From Bacteroidales bacterium (lineage in GTDB: Bacteria; Bacteroidota; Bacteroidia; Bacteroidales; WCHB1-69), in NCBI GenBank assembly GCA_017994425.1, contig JAGOKS010000015.1:1-36831 (forward strand): a DNA stretch of 36,831 nt. Direction: 5' to 3'. The notes beneath the pieces were generated by a model. The model saw only the letters and a list, made by a program, of their open reading frames with translations, was not told the DNA's origin and did no database searches. Shown one piece after another: positions 491-29,285 of this stretch. The position numbers and the translations under genes were made by a program. Within the stretch, counting starts at the first letter, position 1. Each line of letters opens with the position of its first letter.

Positions 491-1762
491 ATGAAAAACA
501 AAAAAAACATAAGTTTCTTATTAACTGGATGGTTTATTTTATCAGGCATGCTATCTTATAGTCAAATTGATATACGGGGAAAAATTAAACAAAAAGTGGA
601 GGAAAGAGTTGAACAAAAAGTCGATGAAAAAATCGATGAAGGCTTGGATGAAATTTTTAATGAAAATGAAGAAATAGAAACTGAAGAAGAAATAAACAAT
701 GAAGGGAATGAATCTCAAAGTCAAAAAACTAATTCAACAAAACCTCAAGAAAAACCAAAATTAGAATCTTATACTAAATATGATTTTATTCCCGGAGATA
801 AAATTTTATTTTATGAGGATTTTTCACAAGATGCCATCGGCGATTTCCCCGCTTTATGGACATCTAATAGCGGTGGTGAAGTCAAAAAAGTGAATATTGC
901 AGAAGGTAAATGGTTTCATTTAAATGGCAAGGATGCTGTATATTGTTACTCGAAAACCATTAATTTTCCCGATAATTTTATAATTGAGTTTGACATTATT
1001 CCAGATGCAGAATATTATCATGGAATTACTTATACTTTATACCAAGAAGATTTAGAAAACCCGAAAGAAATTAATGATGATTTATATCCAGGATTAAAAG
1101 GTTTACATATTACACTCAAACAAGATGGGTGGACAACAAAAGGGTATAATAATGTAACTAGTGCCGATTGGCTTATTGGAGAAAGTTCTACAAATCCTGT
1201 TAAATTAGAAGAAGTAAATCATGTTATAATTTGGATACAAAAAAGAAGAGTAAGAATTTATCATAATGGCGGTAAAGCACTAGATGTTCCTACGAATATA
1301 TACAGTGAAACACAATTCAATAAAATGCTTTTTTCGGGTTGGGATGCCAATAGCTTTCCTATGGTTACTAATCTAAAAATTACAACTGCCTCTCCGGATA
1401 TGCGAAGTAAATTATTAACTGAAGGAAAAATTATATCGTACGGCATTTATTTTGATAGCGGGAAAGACATCGTTAAACCGGAATCCTACGGCTCACTAAA
1501 AGAAATTGCAAAAATATTGACAGAAAATCCGGAGGTTAAAATAAAAATAATCGGACATACTGATAGCGATGGCAATGATGCCTTGAATCTAGATCTGTCA
1601 AAAAGAAGAGCTCAAAATGTTAAAAATGCTTTAATAAAAGATTTTAGTATTAATAGCGATCGTATACAAACAGATGGAAAAGGCGAAATAGAACCACTCG
1701 CACCTAATACATCCTTCGAAAATAAAGCTAAAAACAGAAGAGTGGAATTTATCAAAATTTAA
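491..1762 (+). CDS. OmpA-family outer membrane / peptidoglycan-binding protein
   Basis: A secreted protein with three parts. Residues 1-25 are a signal peptide ending at SYSQ. Residues ~28-75 are a highly charged Lys/Glu segment with heptad-like spacing, probably an amphipathic helix or coiled coil. Next comes a ~190-residue beta-rich region (FYEDFSQDAIGDFPALW...) resembling the concanavalin-like domains often found ahead of OmpA in Bacteroidota. The last ~105 residues are a clear OmpA C-terminal domain (IYFDSG start, GHTDSDG, NLDLSKRRAQNV, final NRRVEF) that binds peptidoglycan. An upstream in-frame ATG at 452 would add 13 residues in front of the signal peptide; the start at 491 gives a normal signal peptide. 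It is probably monocistronic. The ligand of the middle domain is unknown. Confidence 0.85.
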   Translation: MKNKKNISFLLTGWFILSGMLSYSQIDIRGKIKQKVEERVEQKVDEKIDEGLDEIFNENEEIETEEEINNEGNESQSQKTNSTKPQEKPKLESYTKYDFIPGDKILFYEDFSQDAIGDFPALWTSNSGGEVKKVNIAEGKWFHLNGKDAVYCYSKTINFPDNFIIEFDIIPDAEYYHGITYTLYQEDLENPKEINDDLYPGLKGLHITLKQDGWTTKGYNNVTSADWLIGESSTNPVKLEEVNHVIIWIQKRRVRIYHNGGKALDVPTNIYSETQFNKMLFSGWDANSFPMVTNLKITTASPDMRSKLLTEGKIISYGIYFDSGKDIVKPESYGSLKEIAKILTENPEVKIKIIGHTDSDGNDALNLDLSKRRAQNVKNALIKDFSINSDRIQTDGKGEIEPLAPNTSFENKAKNRRVEFIKI

Positions 1763-4251: not shown

Positions 4252-4307
4252 CACAACATTAAAAACGTTATTATTTTATTGATTATTACATTTTATCAAC
4301 ATTAATA

Positions 4308-4364
4308 ATGGAGTTTGAAACCATTAAAAAAAACAAGGCGGAAACTGAAAAGCCAGATGAGTAA
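4308..4364 (+). CDS. Possible 18-codon leader ORF
   Basis: An ATG-started frame of 18 codons (begins MEFETIKK, ends KPDE) lies inside the transcribed leader of the small lipoprotein gene, 23 bases before its start. The peptide is highly charged and has no signal sequence. It may be a regulatory upstream ORF, a tiny protein or chance; only its position argues for it. Confidence 0.25.
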   Translation: MEFETIKKNKAETEKPDE

Positions 4365-4387
4365 GTATAAATTATAAAAAAAATAAT

Positions 4388-27501: not shown

Positions 27502-27659
27502 CATGAAAATTCCATATCATATACTTTAGCCTATAAAAATATTGAATCAGAACTGTTAATCTTTTGAATTTAGTTACAATATAAAATTCAAATTATTATA
27601 TTTTTTAGCTATGCAAACACCACACCTATTATGGTTATAATCTAGCCTCCCCATCCGGG

Positions 27660-27770
27660 TCCACCCCTCTAAATCTCCCCAAACGGGGAGACTTGGCTGT
27701 ATTGCGTGTTGTGAGAGTATTGCCTTGTAGGGTTGGTTCATTTTTTATATGATTTCGTTTTGCAAAAATA
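27660..27770 (-). repeat. Direct repeat, copy A, with -7 element and ATG
   Basis: A 111-bp sequence that recurs at 28704-28814 with about five differences (roughly 95 % identity). On the minus strand it begins with a -7 element (27763-27770) and a short leader. An ATG at 27741 then opens a frame (MNQPYKAILSQHAIQPSLP) that includes an 8-bp palindromic CTCCCC/GGGGAG hairpin. In copy A the frame runs on past the repeat for a further ~30 codons with no recognisable protein. Confidence 0.85.
27763..27770 (-). promoter_or_regulatory. -7 element within repeat copy A
   Basis: TATTTTTG on the minus strand, 21 bases before the ATG at 27741. Confidence 0.5.
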
Positions 27771-27857
27771 TACTTTTATTTTTATCCATAAAATTCACTA
27801 CATTAATTTTTAAAACCAAACACTTATAGTAAAAGGGACAGATGGTAAATTACCCCC

Positions 27858-28010
27858 TTAACAACTCCAAAGCAAAGAAATTAATCCAATTATAAAAAGA
27901 AGTCCATAAACAATTGCTCCTAATGTAATACTTAAATCCATAAATTTAAAAATAGGATTTGAATTTTTCTCATTATCCTTCTCCCTATGTTCCTTTGCTT
28001 TTTCTTCCAT
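27858..28010 (-). CDS. 50-residue single-pass membrane protein behind the Rhs tip
   Basis: The frame starts with ATG 7 bases after the stop of the Rhs-tip gene, on the same strand. It encodes a charged N-terminus (MEEKAKEHREKDNEKN) and one strong transmembrane helix (residues ~27-48, with the stretch AIVYGLLFIIGLISLLW). The last residues are SC. Its position directly behind an Rhs C-terminal tip is where cognate immunity genes lie. Small membrane proteins do serve as immunity against membrane-active toxins, but the evidence here is only positional. It may also be a chance frame. Confidence 0.4.
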   Translation of the reverse strand: MEEKAKEHREKDNEKNSNPIFKFMDLSITLGAIVYGLLFIIGLISLLWSC

Positions 28011-28017
28011 TTATAAA

Positions 28018-28785
28018 TTATTCTTCGGTTAATGTTTTTCTTATTTTCTCTTTCTTATTGTCAATTATAATTTCTAATCTTTTTGTTACTTCTTTTTCTA
28101 TATTAAAATCTTTTTGTGAAGTAAGATTTTTATCTGACAAAATATCTTTCTTAATTTCATTTGTAACAGATTCATAGAATGAAAAAGTGTACTCTTTGAG
28201 ATTATCGCCATATCCATAAATTTTTCCCATACCCTCTTCTTCAAGAACTTTAATAGCTAAATAATCTATCGTCATTTCTTTGGTCTCTGGTTCTGAAAGA
28301 GCTGCAAACATAGAAGATGCTGCTTGTCTATTCAAATTTAACAGAAACTTTCCAAGACCTTCAATTTTTGCTAATTTTGTAAGCAATTTCAAACTGCCTA
28401 AACCAAAAAATTGAAGTCCATATCCTATAATATCATTAGTTGTAATATCAAAACTTGGGTCTTTTGCCCTTTGAATACCAAGCATTCCTTCATACATTAA
28501 TCCAAGATATGGTATAGCTGTCATTTTAGAAACTAAATTAACCCATTTATAATTTGTAACCATAGCCTTATATCTTGTGCTATTATTCTTAGAAGGAGGT
28601 TTGATATAATATCTCCCCGTCGGATCAACAAACATTACCGGATTATTCGCACAATAGGTATAGGGTGAAATGGAAGGATATTTCTCAAACATCGGATCTC
28701 GGCTCCACCCCTCTAAATCTCCCCAAATGGGGAGACTTGGCTGTATTGCGTGTTGTGAGAGTATTGCCTTGTAGGGTTGGTTCAT
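28018..28785 (-). CDS. Rhs C-terminal fragment fused to repeat-derived start
   Basis: Residues 1-26 come from the direct repeat (MNQPYKAILSQHAIQPSLP...). From about residue 28 the sequence is the end of an Rhs core: WSRDPMFEKYPSISPYTYC, then NNPVMFVDPTGR (ending near residue 58). A ~200-residue variable tail follows, without a catalytic signature I recognise. It holds a helical, partly hydrophobic region (DIIGYGLQFFGLGSLKLLTKL) and a charged C-terminus. Rhs cores normally span over a thousand residues, so the body is missing: this is an orphan tip, a decayed or displaced end of a larger Rhs gene. The junction lies at a GGGTGGA shared by repeat and core. A small membrane ORF follows. Confidence 0.7.
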   Translation of the reverse strand: MNQPYKAILSQHAIQPSLPIWGDLEGWSRDPMFEKYPSISPYTYCANNPVMFVDPTGRYYIKPPSKNNSTRYKAMVTNYKWVNLVSKMTAIPYLGLMYEGMLGIQRAKDPSFDITTNDIIGYGLQFFGLGSLKLLTKLAKIEGLGKFLLNLNRQAASSMFAALSEPETKEMTIDYLAIKVLEEEGMGKIYGYGDNLKEYTFSFYESVTNEIKKDILSDKNLTSQKDFNIEKEVTKRLEIIIDNKKEKIRKTLTEE

Positions 28786-28814
28786 TTTTTATATTATTTC
28801 GATATGCAAAGATA
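28704..28814 (-). repeat. Direct repeat, copy B, providing the Rhs-tip start
   Basis: Second copy of the 111-bp repeat, exactly 1,044 bases from copy A. The -7 element and ATG are both kept. Here the frame runs in register into the Rhs core remnant. Confidence 0.85.
28807..28814 (-). promoter_or_regulatory. -7 element within repeat copy B
   Basis: TATCTTTG on the minus strand. It differs from copy A at one of the two free positions only, so both stay consensus. Confidence 0.5.
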
Positions 28815-28877: not shown

Positions 28878-28895
28878 CCTCCCCATTTGGGGAGG
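28878..28895. repeat. REP-like CCTCCCC hairpin
   Basis: A 7-bp perfect stem (28878-28884 with 28889-28895, ATTT loop) followed by GGGAGGGGTGGG. The G-rich flank and C-rich arm resemble the repeat hairpin at 27660-27770. It looks like a third, diverged relative of the same family. Confidence 0.6.
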
Positions 28896-28922
28896 CGGGA
28901 GGGGTGGGATTTTGCAAATATT

Positions 28923-29005: not shown

Positions 29006-29285
29006 AATTAAAAATTAAAAATTAAGAATTGTTAATGAATGAATTAGGTTGTATGTAGCATTTGTAAGCACGACGATTCTATCGGGCAAAAGAAATCCCT
29101 CTTATCGAATAGCGCGTTGTATCAAGTTTAATGCTTAATTCATCATAATTAACTGCAGAGGAGGCAGAGGTTTTACGCAAAGAACGCAAAGAGATATACA
29201 CAGCCTACCCTTATTTTTTCGGAACGAAAAAAACGTCTTTAGACTTTTGTCTTCATTTTTAATTCTTAATTTTTAATTTTTAATT
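29006..29285. mobile_element. MITE-like segment with perfect 25-bp terminal inverted repeats
   Basis: The first 25 bases (29006-29030) are the exact reverse complement of the last 25 (29261-29285), enclosing 230 bases without a convincing gene. The interior contains a tandem ACGCAAAGA pair (29175-29192) and a near-repeat GCAGAGGAG/GCAGAGG (29155-29170). No target-site duplication is evident beside the ends. The arms are A/T-only except for one G or C, so chance or homopolymer-driven similarity is possible, although a 25-of-25 match is unlikely. It could be a non-autonomous element or a long stem-loop RNA. Confidence 0.5.

What the first reader, a model, noticed from the sequence alone, without database searches (positions are those of the whole stretch)
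27660..28814. Two 111-bp direct repeats that each carry a promoter and start codon
Copies A (27660-27770) and B (28704-28814) match at about 106 of 111 positions. On the minus strand both contain a TAnnTTTG element, a 21-base leader and ATG followed by the same ~26 codons. The -7 elements differ only at a free position. The repeat therefore behaves like a mobile transcription-plus-translation initiation cassette able to switch on whatever sequence lies behind it. I know no named element of this kind.
Basis: partly seen in the sequence, partly recalled or inferred. Interest (0 to 1): 0.7.

Follow-up and report, generated by a model that had tools for sequence, protein, structure and literature searches.

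The report
Shared start cassette for orphan toxins
The two repeats are copies of a short promoter-plus-start-codon unit that one genus of uncultured Bacteroidales carries about a dozen times per genome, almost always in front of detached toxin tips and their putative antidote genes; this could explain how such orphan toxin modules, which usually lack a start signal in other bacteria, get switched on.

Summary
It is not a lone local duplication. In copy B the ATG opens a 255-aa orphan RHS tip: a 32-codon leader, the last ~29 positions of the RHS core, then a variable tip, followed 7 nt later by a small membrane-protein ORF. Copy A is the leader alone. A profile of the unit finds 46 copies, in four of six genomes of this genus and in none of 53 genomes from 16 sister genera. 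The unit precedes many different RHS tips, joins the RHS core at several points, and in G004 sits directly before two secreted immunity-like ORFs. The -7 element varies almost only at its free positions. All seven ATG-to-core distances are multiples of three. A second leader type, internal in the arrays, never has the promoter (0/24 versus 21/21). In the closest species the same tip and flank (99.4% identical) carry that other leader, so the start unit is exchanged. It combines orphan polymorphic-toxin modules with mobile-promoter/MITE behaviour.

The parts
28807..28814 (-). Copy B: -7 element TATCTTTG, 21 nt before the ATG
   Evidence: TAnnTTTG is the common upstream motif of this genome's genes and the published Bacteroidetes -7 consensus (PMC7366714)
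28700..28814 (-). Copy B of the repeat: -7 element, 21-nt spacer, ATG, leader codons with in-frame palindrome
28708..28734 (-). Palindrome CTCCCCATTTGGGGAG-ATTTAGAGGGG inside the leader frame (encodes SLPxWGDLEG)
28879..28906 (-). Related palindrome upstream of copy B, about 95 nt before the ATG, in inverted orientation to the one in the leader
28018..28785 (-). Orphan RHS tip ORF, 255 aa: leader (32 aa), RHS core end, variable tip
   Evidence: TIGR03696 positions 47-75 of 76, E=5e-6, below the curated cut-off because only the end is present
28615..28704 (-). RHS core end (DPMFEKYPSISPYTYCANNPVMFVDPTG), the stretch shared by all tips and the likely recombination site
28021..28614 (-). Variable C-terminal tip, candidate toxin domain, no known family; 100% identical in G021
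27858..28010 (-). 50-aa ORF with one apparent membrane stretch, 7 nt behind the tip stop: candidate immunity gene (inferred from position)
27656..27770 (-). Copy A of the repeat: same promoter, ATG and leader, but no RHS core behind it
27763..27770 (-). Copy A: -7 element TATTTTTG, 21 nt before the ATG
27574..27741 (-). Copy A leader-only ORF, 55 aa; conserved unchanged at the same site in G021

Best explanation
The repeat is the common 5' end (promoter, ATG and ~30-codon leader) of orphan RHS tip/immunity modules in one Bacteroidales genus. It gives each module its own transcription and translation start, so that tip and downstream immunity candidate are read as one operon. The start unit spreads by being copied and exchanged between modules: by recombination in the leader and RHS-core stretch that all modules share, and by insertion of a palindrome-plus-promoter unit into modules that had only the promoterless internal start (type N). 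Copy A is a terminal cassette of the same array that has lost its tip. Shown: copy number, conserved -7/ATG/frame, two leader types, leader exchange and array gain/loss between species. Inferred: promoter activity, translation, toxin and immunity function, and the recombination mechanism. The most likely benefit is expression of the immunity genes.
For: 46 model hits in 4 of 6 genomes of the genus, 0 in 53 genomes of 16 other genera. 21/21 P-type starts with upstream sequence have TAnnTTTG 20, 21 or 33 nt before ATG; 0/24 N-type starts do. In 27 aligned copies the six fixed -7 positions carry 2 changes (both in one broken copy), the two free positions 16. A DNA-only search, with no ORF requirement, finds all 15 P and 16 N leaders in frame with the RHS core, with seven distinct P distances (93, 96, 117, 120, 177, 180, 222) all 0 mod 3 and no stops. 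Same tip, immunity candidate and S46 flank at 99.4% in G021 but with the N leader and two more modules upstream. C123 (4 modules) versus G021:C60 (2), outer tips 100% identical, junction inside leader/core. Unit inserted at three positions inside N-type starts and in other contexts. G004:C149 and C80: 7-codon cassette ORF, then 1 nt, then a secreted immunity-like ORF. G004:C93: ORF behind a leader remnant is 35% identical (3e-30) to ORFs directly behind RHS tips in G021.
Against: No transcript, proteome or toxicity data. Copies are homologous, so counts are not independent events. Both key genomes are short-read MAGs (assembly type inferred from fragmentation and, for G021, contig names) and many contigs end in these repeats (C11, C20, C35, C87, C127), so some leader-tip joins could be assembly chimaeras. 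Several copies are decayed (leader-only, truncated). The leader has no recognisable secretion signal, so how a toxin made this way would be delivered is unknown. No full-length RHS gene was found in this incomplete genome (longest 661 aa).
Confidence: 0.72

Rival explanations
1. Autonomous MITE-like element: palindrome, promoter, ATG and palindrome form a non-autonomous transposable unit that inserts in front of toxin modules by a transposase acting in trans.
For: Constant 5' boundary (CCACCCCTC...) next to at least five unrelated upstream contexts, three of them inside N-type starts; inverted palindromes on both sides of promoter and ATG in several copies; tandem units at C123:46868-47186.
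Against: 3' boundary not constant; no target-site duplication seen; no Y1/RAYT transposase in the genome; nearly all copies lie in RHS arrays, which a free transposon would not prefer.
Confidence: 0.15
2. Whole-module duplication only: leader, tip and immunity are copied together and tips then diverge; the 5' end has no mobility of its own and is conserved merely by descent.
For: Tandem arrays with a repeated order leader-tip-immunity.
Against: Identical tip with two different leader types; same leader joined to the RHS core at several points and to immunity-like ORFs; unit inserted inside N-type starts.
Confidence: 0.07
3. Non-coding regulatory repeat: the conserved feature is the promoter and the hairpin; the ATG and frame are incidental and the tips are decaying pseudogenes.
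For: Palindrome also occurs outside RHS (C58, C139); RNA hairpin more stable than shuffles, z -2.4; leader-only copies exist.
Against: Frame kept across seven leader lengths with no stops; tips of 220-300 aa open in most copies.
Confidence: 0.05
4. Ordinary local duplication: copies A and B arose by duplication in this window and have no wider meaning.
For: Two direct repeats 1,044 nt apart.
Against: 12 copies in this genome and 46 in the genus.
Confidence: 0.01

Closest known systems
Orphan rhs-CT/rhsI and cdiA-CT/cdiI modules (Poole 2011 PMC3150448; Koskiniemi 2014 PMC3967940)
   Same: Displaced C-terminal fragments keeping the end of the core, each followed by a small ORF, in arrays; module gain, loss and exchange at the conserved boundary.
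   Different: Published orphans usually lack translation initiation signals and are co-transcribed from the main locus or cryptic; here each has an ATG, and many have a private repeated promoter.
Putative mobile promoters (Matus-Garcia 2012; van Passel 2014; cited in PMC8049555 and PMC4596501, originals not readable here)
   Same: Short repeated promoter sequence in front of different genes in one genome.
   Different: Carries a start codon and in-frame leader codons too, and is confined to one functional class of targets.
MITEs with promoters or fusible ORFs: Correia/NEMIS, RPE (review PMC2229807); BrickBuilt of Porphyromonas gingivalis (PMC4596501)
   Same: Small palindromic dispersed repeats; some carry promoters (Correia, BrickBuilt), some are translated in frame inside proteins (RPE, 107-bp Correia).
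   Different: Here promoter, ATG and translated palindrome are combined in one unit that supplies the N-terminus; BrickBuilt is strictly intergenic; no target-site duplication shown here.
rAID orphan immunity arrays of Bacteroidales (described in PMC12247911)
   Same: Arrays of co-oriented short immunity-type genes with conserved sequence between them, in the same order.
   Different: rAID has a dedicated tyrosine recombinase and immunity genes without tips; here tips are kept and no recombinase goes with the arrays.

Membership tests
Orphan Rhs tip/immunity module | C-terminal rhs fragment retaining the end of the RHS core | tested here: met
   TIGR03696 end matched in P0001 and 14 other places; partial matches are below the curated cut-off, three longer copies are above it
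Orphan Rhs tip/immunity module | Small ORF directly behind the tip | tested here: met
   Gaps of mostly -20 to +58 nt, many ORFs beginning with a signal-peptide-like stretch; 50-aa ORF in the window
Orphan Rhs tip/immunity module | Lies downstream of a full-length rhs gene | tested here: inconclusive
   None found in this 88.5% complete MAG, longest 661 aa; other genera of the family have ~3,000-aa RHS genes followed by tips
Orphan Rhs tip/immunity module | Usually lacks translation initiation signals | tested here: not met
   ATG in frame in all 31 leaders found by DNA search; the published definition says 'usually', so this makes it a variant rather than an exclusion
Orphan Rhs tip/immunity module | Toxicity neutralised by the cognate immunity protein | not testable with these tools
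   Needs expression experiments
Putative mobile promoter | Homologous promoter copies upstream of non-homologous genes in one genome | tested here: met
   Non-homologous tips and immunity-like ORFs; most targets still share ~85 bp of RHS core
Putative mobile promoter | Promoter activity | not testable with these tools
   Only motif conservation
MITE | Terminal inverted repeats | tested here: inconclusive
   Inverted palindromes flank promoter and ATG in several copies, absent upstream in others, including copy A
MITE | Target-site duplication | tested here: inconclusive
   None evident by eye at the junctions; TTTTTGCAAAA on both sides at some sites may instead be the two promoter copies
REP/REPIN with RAYT transposase | RAYT (Y1_Tnp, PF01797) in the genome | tested here: not met
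   No match; genome 88.5% complete
rAID system | Dedicated tyrosine recombinase at the array | tested here: not met
   Only C20 has one nearby, XerC/D-like by eye; none beside C71 or C123

The most novel reading that the evidence does not exclude
A dedicated, self-spreading start element (palindrome, promoter, start codon and fusible N-terminal codons) that converts silent orphan toxin/immunity modules into autonomous genes: an initiation MITE specialised on polymorphic-toxin arrays.
Probability: 0.2. Interest if true: 0.78.

Novelty: new variant of a known kind. Interest (0 to 1): 0.6.

Why it matters
In the enterobacteria studied, orphan Rhs/CDI tips mostly lack start signals, leaving open why they are kept and how their immunity genes are expressed (PMC3150448, PMC3967940). 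A lineage that has fitted a common, exchangeable promoter-plus-ATG to its orphan modules makes that question testable: the same tip exists with and without the promoter in two sister species. It also shows a repeat that moves both halves of gene initiation at once, including codons translated through a palindrome.

Tried and rejected
Local duplication only: rejected by copy number. RAYT-driven REP: no PF01797 protein. Phage-borne spread: no exact match in viral contigs. Known structured RNA: Rfam finds nothing at 27.6-28.9 kb. Cassette driving a housekeeping gene: at C49 it lies upstream of an aminotransferase, but relatives without the array keep a similar proximal upstream sequence, so capture is not supported; the S46 peptidase next to copy A has its own TAnnTTTG. 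Pfam gave no convincing family for the tips examined apart from DUF4347 in the C20 661-aa copy and a sub-threshold pre-toxin PT-TG match. The same cassette in other genera: none by model, though G010 has its own repeated 5' start without TAnnTTTG. The original mobile-promoter papers were not held.

Full report
Observation. The two direct repeats exist exactly as described: 106 of 111 positions identical, extending to 115 nt at 95%. Both have, on the minus strand, TAnnTTTG, 21 nt and an ATG. Copy B's ATG opens a 255-aa ORF; copy A's closes after 55 codons.

What it is. The protein from copy B reads MNQPYKAILSQHAIQPSLPIWGDLEGWS-RDPMFEKYPSISPYTYCANNPVMFVDPTG and then a unique tip. The second block is the end of the RHS core (TIGR03696 positions 47-75). 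The host genome (2.24 Mb, 144 contigs, 88.5% complete) holds 24 DNA matches and 18 protein matches, in tandem arrays on C123, C20, C11 and C127 and singly elsewhere. Each module is leader, RHS core end, a different tip, and within a few nucleotides a different small ORF, often starting like a secreted or lipoprotein. This is the anatomy of orphan polymorphic-toxin tip/immunity modules. In the window the small ORF is 27858-28010 (-), 50 aa with a membrane stretch.

Two kinds of start. P-type modules begin with the finding's repeat. N-type modules begin with AAAGCAAAGCG-ATG and MKxYVVNNFKA. A promoter-blind search finds TAnnTTTG within 60 nt of the ATG in 21 of 21 P starts (spacing 20, 21 or 33) and 0 of 24 N starts (copies are related, so this is a contrast, not an independent test). 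N-type starts follow the previous ORF by 44-131 nt (up to 134 for the longer C variant), P-type mostly by more, so P-type looks like an operon head and N-type like an internal cistron. TAnnTTTG is the published Bacteroidetes -7 consensus (PMC7366714), and in this window 12 of 16 genes with intergenic upstream DNA carry it, against 1.4 expected from shuffles and 6 on the antisense strand.

Selection on promoter and frame. In 27 aligned copies from four species the fixed -7 positions carry two changes, both in one broken copy, and the free positions sixteen. A DNA-only search finds P leaders with seven different ATG-to-core distances, all multiples of three and free of stops, although palindromes and other repeats have been inserted in the leader (two hits at distance 57, MYYYSARYY..., are RHS sequence and not leaders, and are left out). 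That is hard to explain unless the leader is translated from this ATG.

Census. A sequence profile of the unit gives 46 matches: 12 in this genome, 13 in G021, 19 in G004, 2 in G041, none in G032 or G049, and none in 53 genomes of 16 other genera of the family. Contexts: RHS tips joined at the EKYPSISPY point; at GYLYAPFGEI (C35, G021:C70, C82); at FYAFNAKE (G004:C16, C114, C58, C77); at YYAAWICRFVSVDP (G021:C138); a 1,108-aa RHS protein (G041:C43); directly before secreted immunity-like ORFs after a 7-codon frame (G004:C149, C80); and leader-only remnants. An ORF behind a G004 remnant (C93) is homologous to ORFs directly behind tips in G021.

Natural experiments. G021:C89 matches the window at 99.4% from the RHS core through tip, immunity candidate, copy A and the S46 peptidase, but has the N-type leader and two further modules upstream. 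The same tip thus has two different start units; the simplest reading is that the array contracted in this genome by recombination in the shared core, placing a P head on the last tip. At C123 this genome has four modules where G021:C60 has two; the outer tips are 100% identical and the junction lies inside the leader/core stretch. At C49 an array stands next to an aminotransferase where G021, G004 and G041 show none in the proximal 330 nt. The unit made of palindrome, promoter and ATG is found inserted at three positions within N-type starts (C20, C49, G021:C70), after an older promoter copy, inside another leader and in two other contexts.

How it probably works. Shown: multiplicity, conservation, frame, restriction to one genus and one functional class, exchange between modules. 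Inferred: RNA polymerase starts just downstream of the -7 element, ribosomes start at the ATG, and tip and immunity are made together. Because leaders carry no recognisable export signal, the benefit is probably immunity expression with the tip kept as a recombination reserve; that last step is the least certain. Spread needs no special enzyme: the shared ~85-bp core and leader offer homology. A MITE-like route is possible because the 5' boundary is constant and palindromes flank several copies, but no transposase or target duplication was seen.

Known relatives. Published orphan Rhs/CDI modules match the anatomy but usually lack translation starts (PMC3150448, PMC3967940). Mobile promoters, Correia/RPE-type MITEs and BrickBuilt each share part of the behaviour. 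rAID arrays share the immunity-array logic but have a recombinase. I therefore rate this a new variant that joins two known kinds.

Caveats. Both main genomes are fragmented MAGs and repeats end many contigs, so individual joins need long reads. Everything about expression and toxicity is untested.

Noticed in passing
L028:7180-8013 (G000:C123) and L082:5794-6672 (G021:C70): Leaders lengthened in frame by what looks like an intergenic repeat (IYSWGCLNFTLRYSCFPLRSKWGGKGG) and by palindromes, with the frame kept.
   Followed up: partly
L136, L135, L137, L143, L144 (G004 C36, C26, C169, C156, C54): In G004 the upstream half of the promoter (GATTGAAACAAATAAAAGTATACTTTTGCA) also occurs before ORFs with another spacer repeat (ACTGTCCTA..AGGGGGACACTT) instead of the leader; a second promoter-linked repeat.
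   Followed up: no
L096, L097, L202 (G011, G037, G027): Orphan RHS tips in other genera begin with short odd leaders (MPRTPSPHHRITASPP..., MPHHLSTFSSQFSPSP...) that look like translated intergenic DNA; start sites may have been invented repeatedly.
   Followed up: partly
G010 loci L098, L194, L196, L199, L200: Another genus has its own repeated 5' start (MKNRIGKYNKHYYTGNHLSS) with 80-88% identity reaching upstream of the ATG and no TAnnTTTG within 120 nt.
   Followed up: partly
tips at L027:2-832, L028:7180-8013, L026:3340-4392, L030:8727-9488: Several variable tips contain HExxH-like motifs (HELSH, HELGH, HEAVH, HELKH), suggesting metallopeptidase toxins; noted by eye only.
   Followed up: no
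window 4303-4372 (+): Rfam DUF805 RNA (RF03081), 58.9 bits, above the gathering score.
   Followed up: no
window 29006-29285: 34-nt inverted repeat arms (AATTAAAAATTAAAAATTAAGAATT...), 91% complementary, 212 nt apart, between the array and meaB.
   Followed up: no
L140 (G004:C82) about 1053-1099 (-): The upstream region of an SDR/FabG-like gene resembles the cassette promoter (83% over 48 bp); a possible source of the promoter or chance.
   Followed up: no
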